Positions 17,451 to 64,000 of a DNA stretch of 64,000 nt are shown one piece after another. The DNA is from Euonymus europaeus. Its lineage: Eukaryota > Streptophyta > Magnoliopsida > Celastrales > Celastraceae. Positions within the stretch are counted from its first letter, which is position 1, and the number at the start of each line of letters is the position of its first letter. The notes under the pieces are model-generated. The model saw only the letters and a program-made list of their open reading frames with translations, did not search any database and was not told where the DNA came from. The stretch lies in the NCBI GenBank assembly GCA_963580455.1, contig OY756960.1, positions 25,231,238 to 25,295,237 on the forward strand, given 5' to 3'. A program made the position numbers and the translations under genes.

Positions 17451-20400
17451 TTACAGTTTCTTCGGAAAATTGTAAGTTTTCTTTATGAACTTTGCGGCTG
17501 TCTCATCATGCCGGTGACACAGAACTCGCAAGAGCGTGTTCGGCTCAGTAGGATTCCAGTGATCTGAAGTTGGCGGCAGTGGGAGCCTAGATTTAGCGGC
17601 AGAGCCATAATTTTCAAGGATCATACATTTAAATCGCTCGATAAGGCTCTCGGAATCAGTTTGATATAATGGAAGGATACTTTTAACAGTGCTTGACAAC
17701 TTATCTATTATATCAGCTGGCAGTCCATCTCCGTTAGACCAGAAGAGATCGGTGAGAAACTTAAAATCCTCCACAAGTATTTCAGAATCTTGCAAAGAAA
17801 AAGCACGGTAAGGGCCTCCAGCAAGTAAAACCAACAAGAATCCATCAAATGATGCTTTCATTATATCAGTAATAACACGTGTTCTGACCCTGTCATGCAC
17901 TGTAGAAGATATAATTTCCAAATACTGTTCAAGCTCTTGTAGAAAAGGTTCAATCCTGGAAGAAGGAACATCCCCAACATATAAACCATCCCAGAGGACA
18001 TGACTTAGTTCCTGGAAGACAACCTTACAAGCTGTCGCCTCAGAAAGTTGTTGAATCCCTTCCACACAAGCAGCAACTGAAAGCTCAAACCTTTTCCCCA
18101 TCCCATTTGCAATCTCATCCACACGAGTGGATTCTGAGTTCCTAAGCTGGATGATTGTCCTCTTCTCCAGGATATCCAGCTGCATTCGAATATGCTGCAA
18201 AGTATTAATCCGAACACATAATTGGGGTATCCCAAAAGAGTCTCCGTTTGTAGTCCCAGCCTGAGATTTCCTCCTCTGGATTATATGTGATTTATCTTTT
18301 TTTCTAAAAACACCATGAAATTTTGACCCGATGGAACATCTAGTTAAAGCAGGCAAAGTGGGAATGAATGTACTACGAGACCCTGCGAATCAAGGGAGAA
18401 ATTTCTCTTACTATAACAACTAGAAAGGTTAAATTGGAAAGATCTTTTGCAGGCTATGCCACACATACCACAGCCAGATTTTGTCATTGATATGTAGTTT
18501 TGAAGACATGTGTCCAGACCCATCAATAATTCAGGTAGCAAGACTGGATGCATAGGTATTGGCAAAAGGAAGAATGCCTCCAAGGTTTCATCTACAGTTC
18601 GTAGAACTTCAACTGCTGACGGAGCAAATCGCTCTTTATTGGCCCGAGGATTCCATACCTATAAGAGATATTGGCAATGTCAGCTCATTGGAAAATGTTA
18701 CTCATGTTCTATATCTAATTTGAATGATAATAGGGGAATTGGCTAGTGATAAGACAAGCATATTGACCAATGTGATTGTGCATTTACCACAACCAAAAAA
18801 AAAACTCATTTTTGGATGTACTTATGGCTTGAGAATACTATATCCAAGGGTTAAAGCAATTGCTCTGTATTTAACGTATTGGTATCCACATATTTTGAAA
18901 GAAAATATAGCAATGAAATATCAAAGCATATAATGATATTTGTATGCTGCCTTGTATCTCAAAGTGTCCCTTTTCCTGAATCCTGAGGTTGTTCCTATAA
19001 TTGTGGTTAAGAATATATGCTAGTGACAATTTCATTAAATCATGAAAAACAACAACTGAACAGGTCAGGTGCCAAGCAGAACTATAATAGATTAATGACA
19101 CACGAGTTGAACGAGGTTAAGGGGTACTGCAAGTTCGTACATTTGTTGATATATATCCAATCCAATAACTGGTCAGAACCTTCAAATCTCAGACAACCAT
19201 TAAAAGTTAACTCACAAATGGTTAAACAAGGACTCAAGTAAATTAGTAGATCACTTACCTCTTGCTGCAAATTCCTGTCAACCCATTCCTTGAGTCTGTC
19301 AACTCTTGTCCCAATCCATGACTTCACAAGGTTGGCAATTACAGCCTCAGCCTCATAAGGTGGCATCTCTTGTATTATGGACTTGCCACCATCCTCACTG
19401 TCTACTGCATCTTCAACGGCAATCTGCACAAGATCTTTCTCCAGTTTGTCAGCGTCTCTCAGCACTTGTATTGCATCAGGTGTCAACTCACTAACAGCGG
19501 AAACAAATTTCTTCAGCTCATTCCCGTAGCAAGAATGAAGAGTGGCCACGGCCACACCAGCGGCAAGAGTATGCCATCTCTTCATTATTGGACTAAACAT
19601 TGCCTTCTCATTGAAGGCCATTTCGCTAACTTCTTGTGCAAGAATAGAAAGGAGAGGAAGAGGATTCTGCTGTTTTTTATAGGATTTTCTGCTTGAATTC
19701 AGCTTCTCCACTCTCTGTCCTATGATAGATTAGAACATTCAGTATTGTATTTACAAAACGCCAATAGCTTTCAAAAACTTGGCCTAAAATACAAATAATA
19801 TATTGAATGTAAAATAATATAAATTATTAGAAGTTCCATGCTTACAGACTGTTATAAATTATTAGAAGTTCCATGCTTACAGACTGTTAAAGTAAGATAA
19901 ATTCCAGAATCATATCTACTACAAAAGATGTGTGTTTCATGCCCTGTAGTTTCATGTCAAAATTCTTCAAGAAAATGCAAATAATGGAACGTAAAGACTT
20001 GAGTTTCAAATGAGAAAGTTAAAATCGTCAAATGAGTCATGTTCCTAAATAAATATCAAATAAAAGATAAGCAATTATTACTACGGCTAATTTAACAGTC
20101 TACCAATACAAATAAAAATTATAATTGCATCCGTTTACTTGCCTGAGAAAAGGCTGCGCGTGATGATGATCTTATGTAGGAATCAATCCTGGAGCAAGCC
20201 ACATTGACGTCTTTCCTATTCCTATGATACTCATTGACTTCTGCCAATGTTTTTGCTGATAGAACTGCAAGGGAAATGACGTTTTGCATCAGTTCAATAT
20301 TATCACTATGGAAACTATCATGGTATGCAAGAAGTCTTTTCTCTGCCCAATCCAAGATTGAAATTAATATAGAGCTTAAGATCTTAGCGTAAACTGGATC

Positions 20401-28580: not shown

Positions 28581-29381
28581 CTAGTGTTGCCACAATAAGG
28601 CATCAAATGTAGCACCTGTAACAAAATTTTCTGTAAATGAAATCTGATCACTTAAATAATCGCAGTGAACCATTGAATCATAGTACCACGGTGTGTTATT
28701 ATTATAAAGCCAACCATCTAACACCGATTCGCCAAACACGAACTCTTCGCTCAACTCCGGCGACTCATAACTCGTTCCCAGGCTCGGTAACTCCACTATC
28801 TCACTTAACTCTTCTGGCGTCGACGCGTCATCCGTCGACGTCACCCCGGCTGTCGATGAAGGCGATTGAGTGACCGTTGATGATGAAGAGGAGGACGAAG
28901 AAGAAGAAGATGCAGTGGCTTTGGTGGTGGTGTTCTCCATTGAAGCGGCTTTAGCAGCGGCAGCTTGTACGTCTCGGGGAGAGTTGGAAGCGGGCCGGGG
29001 CAGTGACCCGGCGAGTTCAGGGAAGTTTAGGATCGCCGAACTGCCTTTGATGCTCAACGAGGCAACATCGTGTGCACGTGCCGCCATTTCAGGGGTCGAG
29101 AAGGTGCCCAACCAGATCCGATTCTTCTTCCTGGGCTCTCGGATCTCGGATACCCATTTACCCCACGCCCGCATTCGGACCCCCCTGTAAACCGGGTGCT
29201 CGCTGTTGTCCCTCGACCGCTTATTAGGCCTCTCCGTCTCACTCGAGCCACCCGAATCCACCTTTTCGGTTACCGGGTCTTTACTAAACCCAGAAAGCGT
29301 AGACCTTGACTCGGCTTCAGAGACAGATAAGGAGGAGTAATTGACACTTGATTCGGCTTCAGAGACAGCCGGATCAGTCAT
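28581..29381 (-). CDS. AP2/ERF transcription factor, DREB type (266 aa, single exon)
   Basis: Nuclear DNA-binding activator or repressor of the plant AP2/ERF family. One AP2 domain starts [20 protein letters not shown] and includes [19 protein letters not shown]. Val and a Glu-like position in the domain, with the trailing [13 protein letters not shown] and [11 protein letters not shown], mark the DREB A-4 group (TINY and ERF034/035 relatives). A basic KRSR precedes the domain. A long serine run and an acidic C-terminus suggest an activation region. The gene has no intron, as is usual for the group. Members often act in stress or cell-wall regulation; the role of this one cannot be told from sequence. 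Confidence 0.93.
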
Positions 29382-29507
29382 TGCTATAATCGCAAGTTGA
29401 AAATGCGTCGATTTGGTTCAGTGTAGGTTTTAATGGAGTATGGCCAGTAAGTGTTTGTGAAAATGCCTCAACGAAGATGTGCACTCTGTTGTTTGGGTTT
29501 GGGAGGC

Positions 29508-39586: not shown

Positions 39587-41893
39587 CTAAGCTTGCTGTC
39601 CCGGCTTCATTTCTAACCCATTTTGATCTCCATTTCCAACGATTTTCTTCCAGAACCAGTGTTTTTCCCAAAGAAGGTATACCTCCTCTATTGGAACTTG
39701 TTTTGTCTCCGGCAAGAGGAAGTAGATGAAGATGGTCATGATGACAATCAGGCAAGCAAATAGCAGGAAAATTCCATATCGAAGGTGGCAGAGTGAAATA
39801 AGGAAAAACTGTGCAACCAAAGCCGTGAAGATCATGTTGACACACACCACCATACTCTGGCCAGCAGACCTCGTCTCCAGCGGGAAAAGCTCACTTGGGA
39901 CAAGCCATCCAAGGGGACCCCAGGATCTTCCAAAAGCCATGACAAATAAGAATATCGCAATCACAAGGAAGATACTAATTCCTTTTGAGAGATTTTCTCC
40001 TTTTCCAAATTTCAGTGCCAGAGTTATGCCCACAGCGACCTGCAGATCAAATTGATCAGTGAAGTAAGTATTCATGCTTAGTGAACACACGTCAAAGGAG
40101 TTTCATAAGGCTGGCTAAATGTTCATTTACCATACAGATTATCATCTCAGCACCAGCTTCCAAGAAGAAAGCTCTTCTGCCAAATTTGTCCACCAAAGCC
40201 ATTGAAATAAGTGCACCAACGACGAGTGCCCCACTTGATATGGCAGATGAATAAAGAGATGCATTGTCACCAAAACCTAAGCTCTGAAATATGACAGGAG
40301 CGTAGAAGAGTATAGAATTGTTGCCAGAAAGCTGTTGGAATGCAGGGATTCCTAGGGCTCCTACAATCAACTGGGGGCGATTCTTTCGTTGGAGTAGATT
40401 CCTGAATGGGTGCTTTATGGCTTTCGCTTCTTCGCTTGCTTCAAGCATATCAGCAAACTCCGCATCAACATTCTTGGTACCTCTGACTCTCTCCAGTACC
40501 TCTCTTCCCTCTTGTAATCTACCTTGTTCTACAAGACTATTTGGGGTCTCGGGAAGGAAAAGACCCCCAACAAACATCAAAGTAGCCGGGACAGTAGCCA
40601 AGCCAACAGATAACCTCCATCCCCAAGGATGAATCTTTTCAGTTCCATAATTTATAAAGTTAGCAACCAGAATCCCTAAACAAGTTGTCAGTTGAAATAA
40701 TTGGTTAACCGCTCCTCGAATTTTTGAGGGAGCCATTTCTGAAAGATATAATGGAACAGCCTGCGCAAGTACAACAGGAACACATTTAATACTCAAGATT
40801 TGGGATTATCCATTGCAACAAAAGTTCTGAAAGTATGTTTAGCTTACTTGGTTAGCAAATCCAATGCCTATGCCAAGAAAGACTCTTCCTAGAATCAGCA
40901 TTAAAATGTTTACTGCAGCTGCATTAATAACTCCTCCTATAAAGAAGGCGACTGATCCAACTAGGATACTGGCTCTTCGACCTTTGCTTCTAGTTACATG
41001 AGAGGCTGCGAAAGTGAAAACAAGGGCAGAAAAATATAGGGAGGACGTGAACAAAGTAAGAATCTGGTTGTCATATTTACAGTAGTCGGTTTCGTTCAGA
41101 TGTTCATGCTTCCTTCTGTAAATTTTTGGGAAGAATTTCTTTGTGAAATCATCCATGGAAGTGACTCCACCTGCAATCAATGGAAAAGGCCCAATTGCAC
41201 CAATCTTCAGCAAATTATATATACATAATCTGAACTGCAATTTTAAAAGAACAAATGAAAGACCAACTTGAAACTGTATTTCCCTTTCTTAGGGCTTGTT
41301 GGGATAAATTAGGTGCACTAGCAGCTTTCCTCTAAATGACTTCTCTGCCTTGCTATTACAAGTAATAAGGGAAAAAATATACTTTCTGCAACTTTTAAGG
41401 TGAAACTGAAGGAATTGAAGGAGGAACAAAATAACTTGAAAATCGAAAACTATTGTGGCAGTCGGATTGCAGCAAGAAACTGTACTCAAAAATTAAAGGA
41501 AAAGTTTAAAGTTTTTCTTTTCTTAATAATTTTATCAGCCTGAAGTGAATCGCCTTTGATCCGCACTGTTTAAAACTGGAAAAAGAATTATAACATAATC
41601 ACGATTTAACACTAAAAATATATATTTAAACCAGTCAAATCACACTGATAGAATCACTGAAATAGGGAGGAAAAAAAAAATGCAATCACCCAAATCAAAA
41701 TTCACAAGCCAGATAGGTGAAAGATGAATCAATGAAGGATTTGAAACTCACCAGACACACCAAGATCATACCCAAATAGAGATCCACCGAGTGCTGCAAC
41801 AATACAAGAAAATACGAAATACCCAGTAATCCTGTACTCATAAAGGTGAGCCCTTTTTAGTGTCCCTGCGCCTGTGAATCCTCCACCAGCCAT
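39587..41893 (-). CDS. STP14: STP14-like monosaccharide/proton symporter (515 aa, 4 exons)
   Basis: Sugar transport protein of the major facilitator superfamily, placed in the plasma membrane; Arabidopsis STP14 is reported to prefer galactose. Minus-strand exons: 41893-41752, 41170-40848, 40760-40131, 40039-39587; 516 codons with the stop. Signatures are GGSLFGYDLGVSGGVTSMDD, the GRR-like KGRRASILVG loop, GRVFLGIGIGFANQAVPLYL, LPETPNSLVEQGRL, GIPAFQQLSGNNSILFYAPV, DKFGRRAFFLE, GPLGWLVPSELFPLETRSAG and LLPETKQVPIEEVY. Twelve hydrophobic spans are expected. The C-terminus EMKPGQQA resembles STP14. A decayed copy lies just downstream, so the pair arose by tandem duplication. Confidence 0.94.
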
Positions 41894-44721: not shown

Positions 44722-46203
44722 TCAAGGCCCAGATATCAACTCCAGGAATGTTTCAAAATCTTTTGCTGCACCACCATTAGGTGCAGCAGCCTCTACTGCA
44801 ACCTCTTTGAGTGACTTCATTTTCTCTCTCATTTCCTTCCCTTCTTCACGTCCCAATATGATTTCAAAGCACTCAAGCACTCCACTCTTTGTAAGCACAT
44901 CACCTTCAACTCTCAACCCAATCCCCCACACATCCTGTGCCATTGTTGCATTCATGAACTGCTCACCCCAGAATGGCCTACATATCAATGGAACACCACC
45001 ACCAACACTTTCAAACATGGATTGGTATCCGCAGTGTGTGATATGCACACCGGTTGATGGGTGTGATAACACTTGGGTTTGTGGCGCCCATGGCACCACC
45101 TTCCCCTGCATGCTAGTCTTCTCTACAAACCCTTCAGGCAATAAGCTACTGATTTCATCTCTAAGAGACCAAAGAAATGGGATGCCACTCTCTTCAAGAG
45201 CTTCTGCTAATGCCACCACCTCGTTACCGGGCAATTTTGCTGCGGTCCCAAAGCTAATATATGCAATAGACATGGCCTTTTGCCTGTCGAGCCATGACAG
45301 ACACCCTGTTGAGTCTGAGTCTGAGCCTGAGGGAGGCAGTGGCGGTGGTGGCAGCGATAAGGAGAGGAAACCCACGTAGAGCAATCGTTGAAATTTGGAT
45401 TTTAGATCAGTTGTGAGGAGGGGGTCGGTTATTTCTTCATAGGAGATTAGGAGAATAGCACTAACCCTAGGAATCAAATTAATGAGTTTATGTAGCATAC
45501 GATAAAAGAGCGGTGGTGAATCAGAACCCAAGACTAGTTGCTCTCGAAAATCTGCATCACGCAATACAGACAGTCCTGGTAAATCCAAGGCTTGGTCCTG
45601 TGGCTTTGAAGCACCATTTCCATTATCATGATCAGTGGGACTATCAACTCTACCAAGTCTACAACTATTGTTGTAGAATTGGCATATGATATCAGTGTAA
45701 ATGTGGGCAGAGAGGCAATGGGGTGAAGCTACCCATAAAGTCACCCATGGGATATGCAATTCCTCAGCCATCTCGCCAGCAAATGTCAAGAAGGCATCCG
45801 TCAACAAGCAGCAGATAGGCGTACCTGTCTCGGCCACAGTCGCTTCTATAGCACGTTTGAAGTTGTCAGGTGTTGCCTTAATGAAGAGCTCCAATTCATC
45901 TTGCAGGTTGCCTGAGAAGGGATGATCATCCTCTGGGATGCCATCAGCTACGTTGCAGACTTTTATGTTCAGTGGGAGGTTTGTCTTTAATGCTGCAGAA
46001 AAGAGAGTGTTGTTGGATTTCTCTGTGCTGAAAAAGGAAAACTGCAGATTTGGAGATGCCCTTGCTGCCGCCTTATACACCAAATTAAGGAGAGTTCGAG
46101 GGTGAGAGGCAAATGGGAATGCAAGAACAGCAATGTGACGCTTTTCTGAACTCTCTGTCATTACTGGCACCAAAGAATTCTCACTAAGATCATCACTACC
46201 CAT
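44722..46203 (-). CDS. Family 1 UDP-glycosyltransferase, UGT78-like (493 aa, single exon)
   Basis: Transfers sugar from a UDP-sugar to a small acceptor in the cytosol; UGT78 relatives act on flavonols and anthocyanidins. The catalytic-type His34 lies in FASHPRTLL and the activating Asp136 in CLLTDAFLTF. The 44-residue PSPG box runs from Trp372 (WAPQTQVLSH) to Gln415 (FWGEQ). Inside the box the usual HCGWNS is HCGYQS (Tyr393, Gln394), a rare change at the sugar-nucleotide site. Residues 280-300 carry a Pro/Ser-rich insert. MTESSEKRH at Met15 is a second possible start and would fit the family length better. The intron found in many UGT78 genes is absent. Acceptor and activity cannot be told from sequence. 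Confidence 0.9.
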   Translation of the reverse strand: MGSDDLSENSLVPVMTESSEKRHIAVLAFPFASHPRTLLNLVYKAAARASPNLQFSFFSTEKSNNTLFSAALKTNLPLNIKVCNVADGIPEDDHPFSGNLQDELELFIKATPDNFKRAIEATVAETGTPICCLLTDAFLTFAGEMAEELHIPWVTLWVASPHCLSAHIYTDIICQFYNNSCRLGRVDSPTDHDNGNGASKPQDQALDLPGLSVLRDADFREQLVLGSDSPPLFYRMLHKLINLIPRVSAILLISYEEITDPLLTTDLKSKFQRLLYVGFLSLSLPPPPLPPSGSDSDSTGCLSWLDRQKAMSIAYISFGTAAKLPGNEVVALAEALEESGIPFLWSLRDEISSLLPEGFVEKTSMQGKVVPWAPQTQVLSHPSTGVHITHCGYQSMFESVGGGVPLICRPFWGEQFMNATMAQDVWGIGLRVEGDVLTKSGVLECFEIILGREEGKEMREKMKSLKEVAVEAAAPNGGAAKDFETFLELISGP

Positions 46204-47156
46204 CCCAAAACACTATCAGACAACCAAAGGAAGAGAAACTTACATAATGCTTCAAGGAGGACAAACTTAGGAACGGTCATACATTAAAAGTTGCAGATGG
46301 GGGTTTTGAGTAGAACTCATTCATCACAAAGAACAGTTAATAATGTGATGTAATTGCATTTATAAATGAAGACTGTTACTTGATTGCATTTAAAATAAAA
46401 TATTGTGTCAACACCTTTGAACAACATTACCACCTTGATGGCAGGCAGCATACTTCAGTTGTCTAAAACATTTTGCCTAATAAATTAGGTAAACAAAAAG
46501 GTATCAGAAAAAATAGTAGAGAATGCAAATTCAACAATATCATAAATAATTGAATTAGAAAAGCTAAAAATGGTTTCAACTAGAAATAAGCAAACTAGAA
46601 CTTAATAAAGTAAAAAGGGGGAAATAACATTTTATTGAATATTGTCAAAATGATCAGAATTTCCACTCAAGGTCCAGTGCCTACTAGTTTGTACACACCA
46701 GGTCTCCAAGAAGACATACATGCTGTATGTACCAAGACAAAAGAATAATGAGGAGGACAAACAAACCAAGGCACAAGCCCCTCCATGCAAATCAGTAGCC
46801 ACTGAAGCAGTTTACTGGAAACTATAAGATCCTTTCTAAAGAAACACTTAACCCATTTTCATATACACCTATTTACAGAGGGAGAAAACAATTAAGAAAA
46901 GCAAAGGGTCAAAGATTCTATCACCTGAACTCTCCGCCAAATTTTTTATGACTAATTAGGGAGCATCAAATGCACCTTCATGAAATAAAAATAGCATAAG
47001 AGCAATTTCTGGGGCTTGCACCTTGCCTTGCATTCTCTGCCTTGATTCTGAAATTTATGGCCCCTAACTGCCCAACTGTGCCGAAAGTCAATCCCACTGA
47101 GGACCCCACCATTGAAAGGCTCCGAAAAACTGGATATGCCCAAGACAGTAGTTCCT
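46204..47156. other. UGT promoter and PKG-type gene 3' flank
   Basis: No gene was seen. A TATA-like CATTTATAAATG lies near 46360, about 155 bp upstream of the UGT start. The stretch near 46.9-47.15 kb is probably the 3' UTR of the minus-strand PKG-type gene. Confidence 0.45.
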
Positions 47157-53100: not shown

Positions 53101-54955
53101 ATATATTCAAAAGAAAATTAATCAGGACTCTTACATTAGTTAGCCCATTAATATGCACAACTATTACAGTAATATCATCTGTACGAGTTTCATATTGTAG
53201 CCAAAGTCGATAGGACTCTGCAACAATTGCAGCACATGCATCAGGGGGATCTTTATACTTGGCAACCTGGAAAGCAGCTTAATAAGGAAAATCGATGACA
53301 AAAATACCAGAGAAAATTCGGTGAAAATTCAACAACGAAAATATGATCGCAAATCATGAAATCCTGGGGGAAGGGAAAATAAACCGTCACTGGTATCAGG
53401 AATAAAGTTGACAAACTCAGCAAGTAACATGCTATAAGATGACTCAAGTCTTGTTTGCAACTTTTTAAGAGCATATGATTCTTAACGAAGAGAGTAAACT
53501 GAAAACGGGACCAGACCGACTCTTAAACCGCATCATTTTCCCCAATTCACCTTCTTGAAAGATACTAGTATCTGAGCCATTGTTTCAGCTTTAATGAATA
53601 AACGAGCACAGAATTTAAGTTGCTTAGTCAAGCTCCATTAGTGCTCTCCACACGAATTATAAGGTTGAAGTCACATACTTAAGACTAAATCATATGTAAT
53701 TTTCCCTCAAATTAATATGAGGCAATCACAGTAATAGTAGAGCTCATAATGTCTGGTGACAGAATTAAAACAAAGAATCCTACATCTCTGTCCAGTTAAC
53801 AAGAAAATAAACTGTTACTTTACTGTAGCTAACAAGTACTTAATCAAATAAGAACAGGAATATAACATAATTCAAACACCGGATAACACAAAAGACAAAA
53901 AGATACTATACCATGTCAACCACTGATTGGCTAGAAAGGAACTCAAACACCCCATCACTAGCAAGCACAAAGAAAGGATGATCTGGTGTGAGCTCAAAGA
54001 CCACAGTTTCAGGATTGGCAACGACCCCGATAGACTCCGCTATTGAATCCCCAATACTCCTAGTAAAAGCCGTGCCCGGATACATCCCATTTGGAACCCA
54101 CAACCTTGGTGGATCACCGTCGTCACTCTCCTCAGTGCCCCAACACTGCACATCCGGATTCTTCAACCCCTCAATCTGGTCCAATGTCAGCACCCTGGCC
54201 CCACAACGCTTGACCCTCTCCAATTCATCCGCTCGAAAAGGAGTCTGGTCTATGGACAAATCAACGGCCACAATATCCTTCCCTCTCCTCTCCGCTATAA
54301 CTGCCCTGGAGTCCCCGGAATTCGCGACGTATATCGTCCTCCCTCGCACCAACACTGTAATAGCGGTGGTTCCACTCATGCTATCATCCACGTTAGGATC
54401 GGCATGCAACTGTGAATTCGTGGCCAAAAACGAAGCGTGGCAAGCTTCCACAGCATCCGCATGAAACTTATTATCCCTCAACAAGTTCTCGCACAGCTTT
54501 CGCTTCGTAAACTGAGAGCAATGAGCCCCGAATTCTCCATGTCCGTCAAAAACCCCAAAGAAATGGTCGTCCAAACTGGTCCCGAAAGGCGTGTGTATAC
54601 AGAAGCTGTCCTGATTGGCCTTATCTAGGGCATCGGGGTAGTAACCACGCTGCGAGAGGAACGAGTACCGGAGCTCAAAGTTATCGGAGGGGACTTTCAC
54701 GGTTCTGGATCCGTCGGACGGAAGGAACTGTGCGGAGACACGAGAGAGGCGGGTGATACCAAGCTCGGAGTCTCGGGTATTGTTTGGCAGATTGATTCGG
54801 TCCCGGATTTCCGTTTCCTGATTGTCTGACGAAGCGGGAGAGAAGACGGCGACACCAGTAGTGTTCGAAGTGGTCGCATTATTAGGTATTTGTGGCTGTT
54901 TGATCCTCGGTGCACAGACCTCGCCGATGCAGGCTCTTGAGTAGACGCAACCCAT
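47157..54955 (-). CDS. PKG: PP2C / cyclic-nucleotide-binding / protein-kinase fusion, plant PKG type (1,081 aa, 15 exons)
   Basis: Orthologue type of At2g20050 and rice PKG, for which both phosphatase and kinase activity have been reported. Minus-strand exons: 54955-53912, 53266-53135, 53034-52804, 52701-52576, 51907-51845, 51592-51510, 51003-50772, 50695-50379, 50129-50048, 49953-49887, 49568-49291, 49180-49115, 48952-48831, 47668-47512, 47402-47157. Order: MGC N-terminus (myristoylation/palmitoylation likely), PP2C with DGHG at 137-140, [13 protein letters not shown] and ASDGVFEFL, then two cyclic-nucleotide-binding folds (FGELAL at 554-559, FGEWAL at 696-701), then a kinase-like domain (Lys799; [11 protein letters not shown]; ending PEWFDDW). 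The HRD site reads YRG (890-892) and DFG reads DFR (910-912). The start was placed at MGC rather than 15 codons upstream because of the lipidation motif. Confidence 0.94.
51060..51136. repeat. 15-bp direct repeat spaced by 47 bp in PKG intron 6
   Basis: AGATGAAATATTTTC occurs at 51060-51074 and again at 51122-51136. It could be the target-site duplication of a short insertion lying between the copies, or part of the events that brought in the neighbouring poly(A)-tailed piece. Confidence 0.7.
51137..51383 (+). mobile_element. Possible retroposed fragment with poly(A) tail in PKG intron 6
   Basis: On the plus strand, opposite to the host gene, a partly open stretch (reading [20 protein letters not shown]) runs to a stop. 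AATAAA follows at 51352, then a 12-A run at 51372-51383. A polyadenylation signal followed by a tail 15 bp later suggests reverse transcription of an RNA or a LINE end. No target-site duplication around it was confirmed. Confidence 0.35.
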
Positions 54956-56466
54956 CACTGGAAACTCATGGAGGATTTGATCTGATTGAGAAGATATCAA
55001 ACACTGAGCAAGTGAACTCCGTCACTCTGATTGTGAAACCGAGAATCAGAATCATAATCCAATCTCCATGGAAACAATTTCGAATATGCTAAAATGACGC
55101 AAAATTGGGTGAAAATCTAATTGGATTTTATTTTTGTACAGGAAAAAAGGAAACTAATGATTCACTTCGAATTTCTCTTAAATATATGATTGAAATTGGA
55201 AAACAAAATTCGAAATTAATAAAAGTTCTCGTCTTCTTGATCGGTACGTTTACATGGAAAGGATAAAAACCGTTACAGAAAAACAAGGAAAATAATTTAC
55301 AAAAGGAAGTAAAAAAAAAATAAAGAACATGAGCGAGACGCATCAGCAGTCCATGTGTGGAAGTCAGAGAGTCACAGCTTTTTCAGGCCAGTAAATGTGG
55401 GCCCAATAACTTTATTAGGTTGAAGTACAATGGGCCTGTGATGAGTGTGAGTGGTATGGTGATAAGGATCAACATTAGGGAAAGTCATTTTTATCAAATA
55501 CCAACCAATTTATTTGACTAAATAAAGCTACAATACTTGCTCATTGACGCCACGTAACTTTACTTAATTGTCGGGATGTACGTTTGGCAGATTTAACTAC
55601 CCGACTAATCATGTGACATAAAAAACGCCATTATTGACTAATATATACTTACGTGAAGGGCATGTATATATAGACAGAAGAATTCAATCCTAAAATGGAT
55701 TCTAGTTTTTTGGGACATTTGTAGAGGTTAAATCATTTTTGAGAATTCAACGGTATATTTTATTTTCAAAATAGAAATAAAATGTAATCTGAATTTTTTT
55801 AAAAATACCTTTTAATTTATATCGAATAATTTGGATTGATTAATCTCAACTGATAATTATCTGACACCGACTTTTGAGCATTTTGACAATTAACAATTGA
55901 CCACTCACCTTTGCATGGGTCGAGTGATAGTATGGGCCCAATTTTTTTGGGTTGGTCGATGATTGATTATCGGTTGATCGATAATGGATCGGTTGTGCGG
56001 TAAAATTGATCCACTACTAGCCCTTTCTGTGTATATTTACATGTAAAGAATAAATTAAATGGAGTAAATTAAAGCATTTTATGGCCCATGTTTAGTGTTT
56101 TGACCAGATTTGGACAATAGAGTCTCTTGCACTTGTTATAGTAGTTGGACTCTGAGCCCATGCTTTTGGCCCATATTTAGACACAAATTGGCCTGGGGAT
56201 GGAGACACAGTATTATACTATTATCAGTGACAGTAATTCAGTTATGTAATTGTGATTTGTGGTAAAATTTAGGCCCAGAGAAAGTTAAACAGACACACTT
56301 TATGTAATAGTACCTGAACTACGAAGCCCCATGATATCGGCCCAATACGATCCATCAAAATGCAAAAGTCACGAAGACTCTCCTCCATTCTCACTCATTG
56401 ATTATTTGACATTTGATTGTTCGCTTGGGTTCGATCGTGATTCTTGACCAGCGACGAAGAGCGAGG
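54956..56466. promoter_or_regulatory. Divergent promoter region of the PKG-type and FYVE genes, rich in TGGGCY boxes
   Basis: The two genes are transcribed away from each other from this 1.5-kb region. At least seven TGGGCY or GGCCCA/AGCCCA boxes occur between 55390 and 56345 (for example near 55392, 55431, 55934, 56083, 56155, 56169 and 56338). No TATA box is evident next to either gene, which fits site II-driven housekeeping expression. Confidence 0.45.
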
Positions 56467-59400
56467 ATGTTGGAGAAGATCGGTTTGCCGGCAAAGCCCT
56501 CTATGAGAGGCAGTAATTGGGTGGTCGACGCCTCTCACTGCCAGGGTTGTTCCTCTCAGTTCACTTTCATCAATCGCAAGGTTTGTTGTCACCTTTTGAT
56601 CCCAATTGTTCTTGATTTTTTGACATGGTTCTTCAATGCCCATCTCTCAAAATTATTTTTTTCTCCCTGGGTCCTATGTGTTATCGATATTGTGACCTAT
56701 GCAGTTTGTGTGGGAATCGTATTATTGGGGATTTATTTTAGTAATTCGGTGATGTGTAGGATTTGGGTGGACGAATTTCTGTGATATGTGTAGTTTAATG
56801 AATAGTGCTTGAGTGTTCTTTAGTTTAAATTTTATTGGATTGTATTGATCTCTTTTGAACTTTGCCTATTTATGTTCTACATTGTTTTTCCAAGCCTCAA
56901 TGTTTCAAATAAGAGATGGTTTGATTGTTTTAGCTTATCAACAAAAATATACTTCGATGAGCGTTTCAAATAAGTAGTAATGTCATTGGATAACTTTGGC
57001 TACTCAAAATTGAAGGTTCTTAATTTTTCTTCCATCAGTTCCTTGGATTTGAGAACGTTAAGATGAGATTTTAGAGTGTGTTATGAATAAGTTGATCATT
57101 TATATTTCTGCATTTTCAGCACCATTGCAGAAGGTGTGGGGGTTTGTTTTGTAACAGTTGCACCCAGCAAAGAATGGTTTTACGTGGCCAAGGTGATTCT
57201 CCAGTGCGAATTTGTGAACCATGTAAAAAGTTAGAAGAGGCTGCACGATTTGAGTTGCGACATGGTCACAAGAGTCGAGTGGGGAAAGGTTGTTCGCTCA
57301 TTCTCTTCACATATTACATTTTCTATTTCACTTTTCCTCATTGCGACTGACAATCAGTCTATTTTCATTTGTCTGATCTGTGATTCAAACTCTAAATGTA
57401 TCGTGTTTATCTGAATTTTCTTCGCTCTTTTCCTTTTGTTTTTCCATCAGCCTTTCTGATTTTAGATTACCTATAAGTTGGCTTGCACAGGGTGTTTTAA
57501 GCTTTCTTCTCTGCATCTCTTCATAAGGAGGCTCTGTTTTTCTCTTCTAAACCCAAGATATGGGTGAATCAAACAATGAACCTGATCCTAAAAAATACCA
57601 GGGATTGGTGAAAGGTTGTTCAATTGACCTTGGACAATATACAAATTAGTGTCTGCTTATTGTGTGCTGCATTATAATTTAAATTATGTTCATTATATCC
57701 TGCTACTTACCTCTGAGGGTAACTCGTTTACTAAAAATGTTTTCTTTTTTATTTTTGCATCTCTACTCTGAGTATTTGTATGATGTTGGCTGATTATTAT
57801 GGTGTTGAAAATCATTTCTGCAACGGTTCTCTTTTCCATTACTTTGCTGATGATTAAGGGGGTGTGGATGCGTGATAATAATACATGGAAACTAGTCATT
57901 TTACTAAATACCCTGGGATTGTATGGAAGTTTGTTGCTAGAAATGATTTCTTTAAGTATGCATATACAATATATTGCTTTATCCATTTTTCTTGTTGTTC
58001 AAGAATAAAATTTTCTTAGATGCATTTTATTTTCGATGGCTGCAGGATTTTCTGTAGGTGGATCAAATATCTCTAAGAAAAATGAAGATGAAATTTTGAG
58101 CCAGCTTCTTCGCGATGATGGAAAAGAATCCTTTGCATCAGGACATCAGTCTGACAATAGGACGTTTTCCAGTACTCGTAGCACTTCTAGCTGGGCGTCA
58201 TCTTCAAACATTCAAGAAGCTTCCATTCATGATGGTTTAGGAGAGATATCTAGAAGTCACTCTGCTGTTGAGCCAAATTTTGTACAAAATGAGATGGGAT
58301 CTGCAAGTCCTGAGGAGCTGCGTCAACGAGCTTCGGAGGAGAAAAATAAGTACAAAATTCTGAAAGGAGAGGGGAAACCTGAGGATGCTTTAAAAGCCTT
58401 TAAGAGAGGTAAGGAGCTTGAGAGGCAGGCTGAGGCTATGGAGATATTGATAAGAAAAAACCGTAGGAAAGTTACTCCTCCTGGTAACATGGTTGAAATC
58501 CGGGAGAAAGAGGCTCGTACTAAAGGTTCTGGCAGAAACCGAAAGCCACTTCCTCAGTTGAGTAATGAAAAGGTTGATTTACTAGCTGAACTCAAGGAAT
58601 TGGGATGGTCTGATATGGATATCCATGATCAAGACAAGAAACCGGGAAGTACAAGTTTGGAGGGTGAAATGTCTTCACTTTCTGGAGAAACCTCTCAAAG
58701 GAATGATAATAAGAAAAAGGTACCTCTTGGCATTGACAAGACCCAGGTTGTCGAGCATAAGAAAAAGGCTCTTGCGTTGAAACGTGAAGGAAAACTTTCA
58801 GAAGCCAAGGAAGAGCTAAAGAAAGCTAAAGTTTTAGAAAAGCAGCTTGAAGAGCAGGAACTCCTTGCCGAAGCTGAAGATTCTGACGATGAGATATCCG
58901 CATTAATCCGTAGTATGGACAATGAGGAACAAAGTGAATTGTCAAATCCACTTATTCAGGAGCAACACTTTGATATTGAGCATCTTATGGGAACCACTGA
59001 TGACCTTGATCTTGATACTAATTTTGAAGTGACAGATGACGATACAGAGGACCCAGAAATAGCTGCTGATTTGAAATCATTAGGTTGGACAGATGATTCT
59101 GATCATTTAGAAAACGTTACACCCCAGTCACTTGCTGTTAACCGGGAAGCACTTTTGAGTGAAATTCTATCCCTGAAAAGGGAGGCACTTAGTAAAAAAC
59201 GGACAGGCAATGTTGCAGATGCAATGTTGCATCTAAAGAAGGCTAAGTTACTTGAAAGGGATTTGGAAAACCTTGAACCTCATACTGACAATGTAATGGC
59301 CGGCAATTCCTCAACAATTCAGATATCTTCAAGTACTCGGACTGCTGATAAAATGTCAATGCCATCCAAACCTTTCTTGGATGATGGAAATGTGAGAGGC

Positions 59401-61793
59401 GGGGATTTTAATCTCACTGCAAAGAGTAGAGTGACAATTCAGAAAGAGCTCCTGAATTTGAAAAAGAAGGCTCTTGCTTTGAGAAGGGAGGGGAAATTTG
59501 ATGAGGCCGAAGAGGAACTGAAGAAGGGTAAGGTTCTCGAGCATCAGCTTGAAGAGATGGATACTACTTCCAAAATGAAGGTTGGGCACATGGCATTTGA
59601 TGGTAAGGGTCGGGGTTCAGCATTTGAGCATTCTGTGACTTCACAAGATCTGCCTGTTGCTGAAGATAGGGAAGATGTCACAGATCAGGATATGCATGAT
59701 CCAACATACCTTTCTCTTCTGAAAAGCATAGGCTGGAATGACGGACATGATGAGCCTGTTGGCTCTACACTTGAAGCCTCCATTCAAAATGATAAAGTTT
59801 CCCTGGAAACCAGCAAGATGACTTCTTGCATTGCTGCTGGGACATCCAGGAGAACTAAAGCTGAAATACAGAGGGAACTCTTAGGCCTGAAAAGGAAGGC
59901 TCTAGCTTTGAGACGTGAAGGAAAAGCTGATGAGGCGGAGGAAGTGCTTAGAATGTCAAAAGCATTGGAGGACGCGATGACAGAAATTGATGAAGCAAAG
60001 AAAGTTGAATCGTATAGGGCTGGTAGCAAAATAGGAGAATCCCCTTTTGGAACTGTGATTGAGGAAGTAGAAAAAGTTGCTACGGAGGAAGATGACGTTG
60101 TGGATGATCTGGGGGGTGATGGGGCCAATGATGAGGTGCAAGTACAAGCATCTACTGTTGGGAGTAAAATTTCTTCCTCTGCACCACTCGGAGAGATGGA
60201 GCCTATTCCTGATGAAAATGCTAGTCTCACCATCTCAGGTACGCAAAAAAATATTCCTCTTCTCAGGAAACTAAATGTTCATAGCCATCTCTTCCGATCA
60301 ATTGCAATAAATACTTGGGGCAATGATCCTGTGGTGGAAATGTTTTCTGAAGCATATTGTTTTTTATTCCTGATAGATGCAAGCTTAGGATTTATCTATT
60401 GATGATGTACTTTTTGGTTACACATTGTCCATGAAAAAAAAATGCTCCTCTTGCAGATCTCATGTAAATAGCAGTTTCACCGTTTGTTTTACCCCCAAAT
60501 TGTATTGCATCACCTAGTGCAACTTTTTACTTTAGGATGTGTTCTGGTTGTACGAGGCCTGAGAGATAATAATTTCAATATTTAAGCAATTTCTAATTGT
60601 GAACGGTAAGAATTGAAATATGGACCTTCATCCATAACAACTGGGCAATGCCCGGAATACAATTTGTTTGCTGTCTCTTATTCGGTCATTAACAGTGATG
60701 ACTGAAAGCTAGTTCTATCTCCTTGTGTGATTTATTTAGTTTATTATCTGTGGCAGCTTCTATATCACCAGCTCTAGTAAAGCAGATTAAAGAAAAAACA
60801 GAAGCAGGCAGTATGGGTTGCGAGAAAGCTCTTTCGGAGACTGGAGGAGACATTGTTAAAACTCAGGAGTTCCTCAGGCAAAAAGGATTAGCAAGCGCAG
60901 ACAAGAAAACAAGTAGATCCACAGCCGAAGGAAGAATTGGCTCGTACATTCATGATAGCAGGATTGGGGTACTGGTAGAGGTTAATGAAGACATGAAGCC
61001 GCATGTTAATGAAACAAAATCAGCACCGGGGAACACTTCTCAAAACAACCAAAATGTGCCTCGGGATACAATTTTGTCCCATAAGAAGAAAGCAGTTGCT
61101 CTAAAGAGAGAAGGAAAATTGGCAGAAGCACTAGAAGAACTCAGGCAGGCAAAACTGCTGGAGAAGAGTTGCCAGCAAGATAACCCTGAGAAAAAAAATG
61201 GGTTGCATGATATGCCGGCTTCTACATCGAACACTCCTTTGGCTGGACCGACAAGGGATAGTGCATCAAACTTGGCTCCAAAGCCAGCACCTGGACGTGA
61301 TCGGTTCAAGTTGCAACAAGAGTCTCTCAGCCATAAACGACAGGCTCTTAAGCTGCGAAGGGAAGGTAGGACCCAGGAAGCAGAGGCCGAATCTGAGTTG
61401 GCCAAGGCTCTTGAGGCACAATTAGAGGAGTTGGCTGCTCATGAACCAAGTAAGCCTTCTGTCAGTGGGGCAGGACTTGCAGATGATGCAGTTATGGAAG
61501 ATTTTCTTGATCCTCAACTCTTGTCAGCTCTAAAAGCACTTGGACTGGAAGACCCCAATACCGCACCACAAGCCCCAGCGAGGCTACAGCGTGTGACGGA
61601 TGTAGCAGAGCCTGCAAAACCAAGTGTTGGCAAGAATGAAAACCATGGCCAAGAGAGAATTCAATTGGAAGAGCAGATCAAGGCAGAGAAGTTAAAAGCA
61701 TTGAACTTGAAACGATCAGGAAAGCAATCTGAGGCTTTGGACGCTTTTCGCCGTGCCAAATTGCTTGAAAGGAAACTGAATTTGTTGGCATAA
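56467..61793 (+). CDS. FYVE zinc-finger protein with helical repeats and an EF-Ts-like segment (1,170 aa, 4 exons)
   Basis: Exons: 56467-56580, 57120-57288, 58046-60238, 60757-61793; 1,171 codons with the stop. The N-terminal FYVE domain is split by intron 1. It has WVVD, the basic RKHHCRRC motif, RICEPC and all four Cys pairs, so PI3P binding on endosomes is expected. The body carries about eight copies of a helix-turn-helix unit (type [20 protein letters not shown]) and four short LKxLGWxD-like motifs. Residues 826-902 at the start of exon 4 match the N-terminal UBA-like part of plastid EF-Ts ([49 protein letters not shown]) and stop just before the TDFV motif. The rest resembles my memory of At1g61690. 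The function is not known to me beyond lipid binding; a shorter form could end at 60402 if intron 3 is retained. Confidence 0.9.
60757..60986 (+). other. EF-Ts-like (TS-N/UBA) coding segment joined to the FYVE gene
   Basis: 77 codons with clear similarity to plastid elongation factor Ts, open throughout and in frame. The signature TGAGMMDCKKAL is altered to [12 protein letters not shown], and the match breaks after EVN, before CETDFV. The segment begins exactly at the splice acceptor, as expected if an EF-Ts exon with its own acceptor was copied in. Confidence 0.75.
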
Positions 61794-62410: not shown

Positions 62411-64000
62411 ATGGTGGGAATACTTCCCATGGCTTCTTCCATTAGGCCTTCTCTCTCGACGTTCTGGTTCGCCGGTGCCTCTCGTTACGGTGTTTGTCTT
62501 TCCTCTTACAATCCTTCTAGGCGATTCGCCTATCTTGGCAGCAGTGAGGCTCTCTTCTAATTTTTCTAGTGTATGCATTAAACGCTGTTCAGTGCATATT
62601 CTTATAAATTGATTGATGAATAGGTATATGTTGATGTTTTACTAAATTAGTGGATTGTATTCACGACGTAAGAGGTGGTGGTGTCGGATTGACTGTGGCT
62701 GAATGAGAATATTCGGATTCGGTGTCTAATATGTTTTAGTAGAACAATTGAAAGAGATATTTCTTCATGCGGAGTTCAAGGTGTTTAGTGTCAGTGAGAG
62801 TGAAAACAGCATTCTATATCGAGTGAAATTGAAGTGATGTTGTGTTTTGTGCTGTATTGGCCGCACAATCGTGAAGTAGGGACTGGAATGGCTCCACGAG
62901 AAGTGCATCGGTTTTTTTATTCAATTTTCTGTCACTTTCCAAAACTAATTTTCAAAACATATCTTTTAAAAACCTGTTTGGCTAATTTGAGTTAGTCTGC
63001 ATGATTCGAGCTTTGCCTGTCTTGAGAATCATGAATATGATGTACCTCAAAGACATACCCTGTAATATCGCTTAAATTGTGGTTGATGTAAAGAGTACTT
63101 GTTTTCTGCCTTCAAATTATCATTTTCCTTATTGGGATACATTTTGTATAAAAGGTTGTATGTTAAAGTAAAAACTTGACATACTGGTAGAGTTGCTTCA
63201 ATGCAATATAGGAAATGTGCGCAAACAGGTGGGCCCCTGCAAAAAATAGCATTTACTATTTGGCTTGAATATCTAATCGAAGGAAGAATGATTGTGAGTA
63301 TTGATGTATCTAATTTGAAATAAGTCACTGACTTGTGATGTATCATGTGCTGCAATATATGAGTGTGCTGATAATGCTGATATGCTTACCAATTTTCATA
63401 AATCTGATTTGTTTTGCAGCCATTTTACAGTCACGCATCTTTGGCTTGAAAACTTCAAAGCTCTTGAGAAGTGAGGGTACAAGTGTTGGGGTGGCTGCTA
63501 GAAATATAGTACAAGCAAGCACATCTGCTGCTCAAGAAAATGTTCTGGAGTGGGTTAAACAGGATAAGAGAAGAATGCTTCATGTCGTTTATCGTGTTGG
63601 GGATTTGGACAGGACAATAAAGTAAACTACTTCTGGCTCGTTTCTTTTGTTCTCTTTTTATTTGATATGTTGTTTCTTATCTTCATTTGAAATGCTTAGG
63701 GTCAAACGATGATGTGATGACTGCAGATTTTACACTGAGTGCCTGGGGATGAAGCTACTTCGGAAGCGTGACATTCCAGAAGAGAGATACATTAATGCCT
63801 TTCTTGGTTACGGGCCTGAAGATTCTCATTTTGTTATTGAACTCACTTACAGTAAGTTATCTAGTTACTACTAGGTATTGACACCATCTTCTAACATCTG
63901 CTATGATATTGTGACACCTTTTAGCATGAGTCACCAGTGCACTGAGATAAGTACACAGAATACTGTATTTTATTCTTACATGAACCAATTTGTGAACTTC
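62411..64000 (+). CDS. GLX1: Glyoxalase I (lactoylglutathione lyase), plastid type, 3' part beyond window
   Basis: Isomerises the hemithioacetal of methylglyoxal and glutathione to S-lactoylglutathione. Exons in view: 62411-62543, 63420-63621, 63727-63851; the next intron starts at 63852 and runs out of the window. The first exon ([20 protein letters not shown]) is Ser/Arg-rich and acid-poor, a likely transit peptide. The catalytic domain begins [20 protein letters not shown], followed by [18 protein letters not shown] and [13 protein letters not shown]. The metal-ligand-type His and Glu are visible in MLHVVY and VIELTY. It matches my memory of At1g67280, a two-domain enzyme of about 350 aa, so roughly two-thirds is missing. 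The exon 1 donor was chosen by phase. Confidence 0.92.

What the first reader, a model, noticed from the sequence alone, without database searches (positions are those of the whole stretch)
60757..60986. Plastid EF-Ts exon fused in frame into a FYVE-domain protein
Exon 4 of a PI3P-binding FYVE gene opens with 77 residues that look like the EF-Ts N-terminal UBA-like domain plus the start of its core. They are in frame, free of stops, and start at the splice acceptor. The match ends just before the TDFV motif used for EF-Tu contact, and the TGAGMMD signature is altered. An organelle translation factor piece inside an endosomal protein suggests exon shuffling and possible new use as a ubiquitin-binding-like helical module.
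Basis: partly seen in the sequence, partly recalled or inferred. Interest (0 to 1): 0.75.

Follow-up and report, generated by a model that had tools for sequence, protein, structure and literature searches.

The report
Endosomal gene patched with chloroplast-factor fragment
In one plant, a gene for a protein predicted to bind endosomal membranes has had a stretch of its middle replaced by a piece of the nuclear gene for a chloroplast translation factor, apparently intron included and in frame, making a chimeric gene whose use is not known.

Summary
The gene at 56467-61793 encodes an N-terminal-FYVE protein (AT1G61690 type); its closest listed relative is from Tripterygium (Celastraceae). Residues 826-902 are the start of the first EF-Ts repeat of the plastid EF-Ts polyprotein (PETs). 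The 49 residues before intron 3 (from ~60091) match the PETs linker. As both exon ends around intron 3 are PETs, the intron most simply came with them: a genomic patch, not an mRNA copy. It replaces ~300 residues of the ancestral FYVE protein, including a conserved repeat. Of 361 proteins held, only the window's has both parts; the 120 listed FYVE relatives lack the piece. It deviates at 8 of 56 near-invariant PETs columns (120 PETs: at most 3), which argues against misassembly and against exchange-factor activity. Three UBA-like helices are still predicted, but no EF-Ts_N or UBA profile match is seen; the Tripterygium piece itself matches only below Pfam's cut-offs. The chimeric gene is well supported; transcription, splicing and function are untested. 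It is a new member of a known kind (exon-shuffled plant gene), of moderate interest.

The parts
56467..56580 (+). FYVE gene exon 1
   Evidence: open frame, GT donor follows
57120..57288 (+). FYVE gene exon 2 (FYVE zinc finger aa 21-75 spans exons 1-2; [10 protein letters not shown] and RIC present)
   Evidence: PF01363 E=7e-17
58046..60090 (+). FYVE gene exon 3, native part (LGW / RREG helical repeats), to about the left breakpoint (place uncertain by some 15 bases)
   Evidence: aa 57-770, 583 of 707 aligned residues identical to Tripterygium P0002
60091..60238 (+). end of exon 3, derived from the PETs linker (aa 777-825 plus first base of codon 826)
   Evidence: 37/49 and 38/49 identical to Tripterygium PETs P0122/P0123
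60239..60756 (+). intron 3 (518 bp, phase 1), inferred to come from the PETs gene; no trace found of the 93-residue PETs linker stretch that lies between the two pieces in Tripterygium P0122
   Evidence: both flanks are PETs; linker stretch not found in the intron; exon boundary at the same place in other PETs
60757..60986 (+). start of exon 4: N-terminal three-helix domain and start of the core of PETs EF-Ts repeat 1 (aa 826-902)
60987..61793 (+). rest of exon 4: native FYVE-protein C-terminal repeats to the stop
   Evidence: 229 of 267 aligned residues identical to Tripterygium P0002

Best explanation
A lineage-specific chimeric gene. In this plant's line, after it split from that of Tripterygium, ~0.9 kb of genomic DNA of a nuclear PETs gene (plastid EF-Ts polyprotein) took the place of ~300 codons in exon 3 of the class III FYVE gene. 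It carried the end of a linker exon, an intron and the start of the first EF-Ts exon, probably by DNA repair with a copied filler or another ectopic exchange (inferred). The PETs donor and acceptor sites came along and now define intron 3 (inferred), so the transcript is predicted to splice to one open frame: FYVE finger - repeats - PETs linker - EF-Ts N-domain - repeats. Shown: the sequence anatomy, the homologies, the absence from the listed relatives. Inferred: that it is transcribed and spliced so, that the protein still goes to PI3P membranes through the intact FYVE finger, and that the EF-Ts piece serves as a passive helical spacer in place of a lost repeat rather than as a nucleotide-exchange factor or a ubiquitin binder.
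For: 1170-aa open frame across four exons. EF-Ts match E~1e-13 to solved EF-Ts and 85.7% identity to Tripterygium PETs. The linker before the intron is PETs too. None of the 120 listed FYVE relatives has the piece; of 361 proteins held, 1, the window's own, has both parts. PETs of other plants show an exon boundary just before [10 protein letters not shown]: two Durio isoforms differ only by one Ala there, and two Rehmannia PETs proteins differ, among other places, by a 79-residue block ending there. Of the 120 proteins listed, 43 begin within 60 residues of this point with [ATSP]A before xISP, many reading like unspliced intron ends (WIAATISPAL); the window reads VAASISPAL in the same phase. 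The part behind the patch is as conserved (229/267) as the part before it (583/707).
Against: No transcript or second assembly was available. The host's own PETs gene could not be fetched, because the genome search did not complete. No Tripterygium DNA was at hand, so breakpoints, intron homology and dN/dS are not measured. Intron origin rests on its flanks and on protein-level traces. The 43 include one that reads like a spliced linker (ENVTTATISPAL) and 10 with a bare LDAATISPAL start; 10 more fell in 'other' and 3 were K-type. The other comparisons show indels elsewhere that say nothing about this site.
Confidence: 0.78

Rival explanations
1. Assembly or library chimera: a piece of the functional PETs gene was wrongly joined into the FYVE gene.
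For: One assembly only.
Against: The piece deviates at 8 of 56 near-invariant PETs columns; of 120 PETs proteins 71 deviate at 0, 36 at 1, 9 at 2 and 4 at 3. Over all 76 positions the window deviates from the PETs consensus at 13, the PETs at 4.7 on average and 8 at most (the columns were defined on the same 120 proteins, which favours them). A misjoined functional gene would hardly do so. Both joins are in frame; there are no N runs in the window.
Confidence: 0.05
2. The patch is real but is spliced out or disrupts the gene: transcripts bypass it, or the locus is a decaying copy beside an intact FYVE gene elsewhere in the genome.
For: No expression data. A conserved repeat and an LTG-containing motif are lost. 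In a simple neutral simulation the frame stayed open in 301 of 600 runs with substitutions only, so openness alone is weak evidence.
Against: With indels at 0.1 or 0.15 per substitution only 43 and 13 of 600 neutral runs stay open (rates assumed). The C-terminal part, 229/267 identical to Tripterygium, is reached in frame only through the patch unless other splice sites are used. The FYVE motifs are intact.
Confidence: 0.15
3. A variant of the best explanation, not exclusive of it: co-opted ubiquitin-binding module, in which the EF-Ts UBA-like bundle now binds ubiquitinated cargo at endosomes.
For: A three-helix bundle is predicted at pLDDT ~75-85; structural neighbours include UBA domains in ubiquitin complexes and the ESCRT-I UBAP1 SOUBA domain (middling Z). 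PETs is listed as UBA-like in a table of candidate receptors in PMC9400066 (passages seen).
Against: No EF-Ts_N or UBA-type Pfam match for the piece at E<=10; the Tripterygium piece gives EF-Ts_N 28.0 bits (cut-off 33.2) and UBA_7 12.5 bits (cut-off 27), so both are sub-threshold and the contrast is one of degree (HMMER's filters drop most weak matches). The model loop after helix 1 reads EAG, not MGF/MGY (motif recalled). AlphaFold follows the family alignment and is a weak test of point changes.
Confidence: 0.06

Closest known systems
Plant class III FYVE protein (AT1G61690 type; Tripterygium LOC120004975, P0002)
   Same: N-terminal classic FYVE finger followed by LGW/RREG repeats; 82% and 86% identical to P0002 before and after the patch (P0002 as listed lacks the first 56 residues). 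AT1G61690 is class III, FYVE at the N-terminus, function unassigned, in PMC3017826 (passages seen).
   Different: The window protein lacks P0002 residues ~718-1016 and has 126 PETs-derived residues instead.
Plastid EF-Ts polyprotein, PETs / EMB2726 (AT4G29060; Tripterygium P0122, P0123)
   Same: 49 linker residues and the first 77 residues of EF-Ts repeat 1, with a splice acceptor in the place where other PETs appear to have one.
   Different: No S1 domains, no EF-Ts core beyond EVN, no TDFV, degraded TGAGMMD, no PETs N-terminus.
Fusion (chimeric) genes of plants, e.g. the 310 of four Oryza species (PMC9199173, abstract and outline seen)
   Same: New gene structure by joining parts of two genes.
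   Different: Here a piece with (inferred) its own intron replaces an internal stretch of another gene; how many of the Oryza cases are of this internal kind was not looked up.

Membership tests
Class III plant FYVE protein | N-terminal classic FYVE finger with WxxD, R(R/K)HHCR-type and R(V/I)C motifs | tested here: met
   PF01363 E=7e-17 at aa 21-75; WVVD, RKHHCR, RIC in the translation; motifs as listed in PMC3017826
Class III plant FYVE protein | Full set of repeats and the DLLTGDD-type motif of eudicot relatives | tested here: not met
   Residues ~718-1016 of P0002 missing; L952, T954 and G955 invariant in the 12 relatives aligned, chosen from 120. The pattern LMDLL..W occurs in 11 of 120 and [LM]xDLL in 21 of 120, so the motif is loose outside LTG. 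That this set defines the class is my inference.
EF-Ts (nucleotide exchange factor) | N-terminal domain homologous to EF-Ts | tested here: met
   by pairwise search; no Pfam EF-Ts_N match
EF-Ts (nucleotide exchange factor) | Core with TDFV, and intact TGAGMMD signature (roles recalled) | tested here: not met
   Piece ends at EVN; TGAGMMD reads TEAGSMG
Ubiquitin-binding UBA domain | UBA profile match | tested here: not met
   No UBA-family match at E<=10 for the 76-aa piece or P0001; the Tripterygium piece also stays below the cut-off
Ubiquitin-binding UBA domain | Three-helix UBA fold | tested here: inconclusive
Ubiquitin-binding UBA domain | Binds ubiquitin | not testable with these tools
   needs a binding assay

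The most novel reading that the evidence does not exclude
A working, selected chimeric endosomal protein in which an intron-bearing genomic patch of a plastid translation factor replaced one of the protein's own helical repeats, keeping the donor gene's splice sites, so that a UBA-like bundle from EF-Ts now acts in PI3P-membrane trafficking.
Probability: 0.15. Interest if true: 0.6.

Novelty: new member of a known kind. Interest (0 to 1): 0.42.

Why it matters
It is a clean, apparently young case of exon shuffling in which donor, recipient, ancestral state and replaced sequence can all be named, and in which the donor's intron appears to have travelled with the coding pieces. That makes the step from random patch to usable protein testable in living relatives. 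If expressed, it shows that a trafficking protein can tolerate, or use, replacement of a conserved repeat by part of an organelle translation factor.

Tried and rejected
Expression by proxy: a 273-aa query spanning both junctions, for proteins of fragment size, gave 1544 hits of which the best 120 were listed; none of those 120 is chimeric. The searches with the full-length protein listed the best 120 of 982 (where only the 7992 candidates sharing most words were scored) and of 560; none of the listed proteins is chimeric. Unlisted hits were not seen.

The 93-residue PETs linker stretch of Tripterygium P0122 (and its counterpart in P0123) was sought in intron 3 and not found. Mobile-element marks: in 59700-61400 no direct repeat of 14 bases or more and one weak 17-nt inverted repeat, inside intron 3; a transposon-carried insertion is not supported, nor excluded.

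The first count of conserved PETs columns (112 of 120 proteins) was biased by its anchor pattern and was replaced, which takes the best ungapped 76-residue match to P0122 in each of 120 PETs proteins. A first look at GT and AG sites around the patch was not taken further. In the fold comparison, families not listed are not excluded.

A published report of such a fusion: none noticed in listings with the terms FYVE + EF-Ts + plant (1 paper), FYVE + elongation factor Ts (6 papers) and AT1G61690 (3 papers). Passages were seen only in PMC9400066, PMC3017826, PMC10050702 and PMC8343077, and the abstract and outline of PMC9199173. Searches were other listings. Most subscription journals are not in the library.

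Full report
What is there. Exons 56467-56580, 57120-57288, 58046-60238 and 60757-61793 on the + strand join to an open frame of 1170 residues; the three introns are GT-AG and the last is phase 1. The protein opens with a classic FYVE finger (PF01363, E=7e-17, aa 21-75) and goes on in LGW and RREG repeats. The closest listed relative is P0002, 'uncharacterized protein LOC120004975' of Tripterygium wilfordii, so the window very probably comes from a Celastraceae or near relative (inference). One relative (P0038) is labelled 'like AT1G61690' by its source; that is the class III FYVE protein of Arabidopsis (PMC3017826, passages seen).

The EF-Ts piece. Translation from 60756 matches EF-Ts of solved structures (best E=9.3e-14) and the first EF-Ts repeat of Tripterygium PETs P0122 at 85.7% over 77 residues. 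It ends at GVLVEVN, immediately before CETDFV of PETs. All 11 differences from P0122 lie in the first 54 of the 76 residues compared.

More than one exon. The 49 residues just before intron 3 are also PETs: they share 37 of 49 with the P0122 linker and 38 of 49 with P0123, which share 40 of 49 with each other. In P0122, 93 further residues lie between this linker and [10 protein letters not shown]; no trace of them was found in intron 3. Both exon ends around intron 3 are thus PETs, and the simplest reading is that the intron came with them.

Support for the intron origin from other plants. Two Durio PETs isoforms differ only by one alanine at TK|A(A)TISPAL, as expected of a shifted splice acceptor. 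Two Rehmannia PETs proteins differ, among other places, by a 79-residue block that ends exactly there. Two Castanea proteins differ by a 23-residue block after ETK, probably another linker exon boundary. Other pairs compared show indels elsewhere. Of the 120 proteins listed, 66 begin within 60 residues of this point by one pattern. By a narrower pattern 56 do: 43 with [ATSP]A before xISP, 3 K-type, 10 other. Many of the 43 read like unspliced intron ends (for example LLWIAATISPAL), as the window does in the same phase ([10 protein letters not shown]...TCTGTGGCAG|CTTCT). Not all do: one reads ENVTTATISPAL, and 10 have a bare LDAATISPAL start.

What was replaced. Alignment with P0002 leaves its residues ~718-1016 without counterpart. 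In 12 relatives, chosen from the 120, this stretch holds a conserved LGW/RREG repeat and a motif with invariant L952, T954 and G955. Stricter forms of the motif, LMDLL..W and [LM]xDLL, are in 11 and 21 of 120 relatives. Before the patch 583 of 707 aligned residues, and behind it 229 of 267, are identical to P0002.

How special. By local phmmer none of the 120 relatives listed has a significant match to the EF-Ts piece (best E 0.039). Of 361 proteins held, 360 from the database, only the window's own has both EF-Ts and FYVE-flank matches. Only the best 120 hits of each search were seen (of 982, 560 and 1544). A chimera would be expected near the top, since its score would gain from both parts.

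Is it a misassembly? The piece departs from 8 of 56 near-invariant PETs columns; of 120 PETs proteins none departs at more than 3. In all it departs from the PETs consensus at 13 of 76 positions, the PETs at 8 at most. The columns were defined on the same 120 proteins, which favours them, but the gap is wide. So it is hardly a copy of a working PETs gene misplaced by the assembler. It also argues that the piece no longer works as EF-Ts, in line with the missing TDFV.

Is the frame kept by selection? A neutral simulation run until 11 residues of the 76 had changed left the 126-codon patch open in 301 of 600 runs without indels, 43 of 600 with 0.1 and 13 of 600 with 0.15 indels per substitution. 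This is suggestive only; the rates are assumed and the window sequence stood in for the unknown start.

Verdict. It is best read as a genomic patch of PETs with its intron, replacing part of the FYVE protein, and specific to this lineage as far as the listed relatives show. The kind (exon-shuffled or fused plant gene) is known; 310 fusion genes are reported for four rice species (PMC9199173, abstract). Transcription, splicing, exact breakpoints and function remain untested; the host genome search did not complete (ten calls).

Noticed in passing
window 53909-55021 (-): Protein phosphatase 2C gene (PF00481 E=9.6e-34) upstream of the FYVE gene, on the other strand.
   Followed up: no
window about 62412-64000 (+): Start of what looks like a glyoxalase I-type lactoylglutathione lyase gene (judged from the translation and recall, not searched), running off the window end.
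   Followed up: no
   Followed up: no
   Followed up: no
window 17454-46212: Other ORFs with Pfam matches (ten ORFs scanned): PATROL1-like (17454-18389 -), AP2 domain (28584-29417 -), sugar transporter (40095-40805 -), UDP-glycosyltransferase (44725-46212 -).
   Followed up: no
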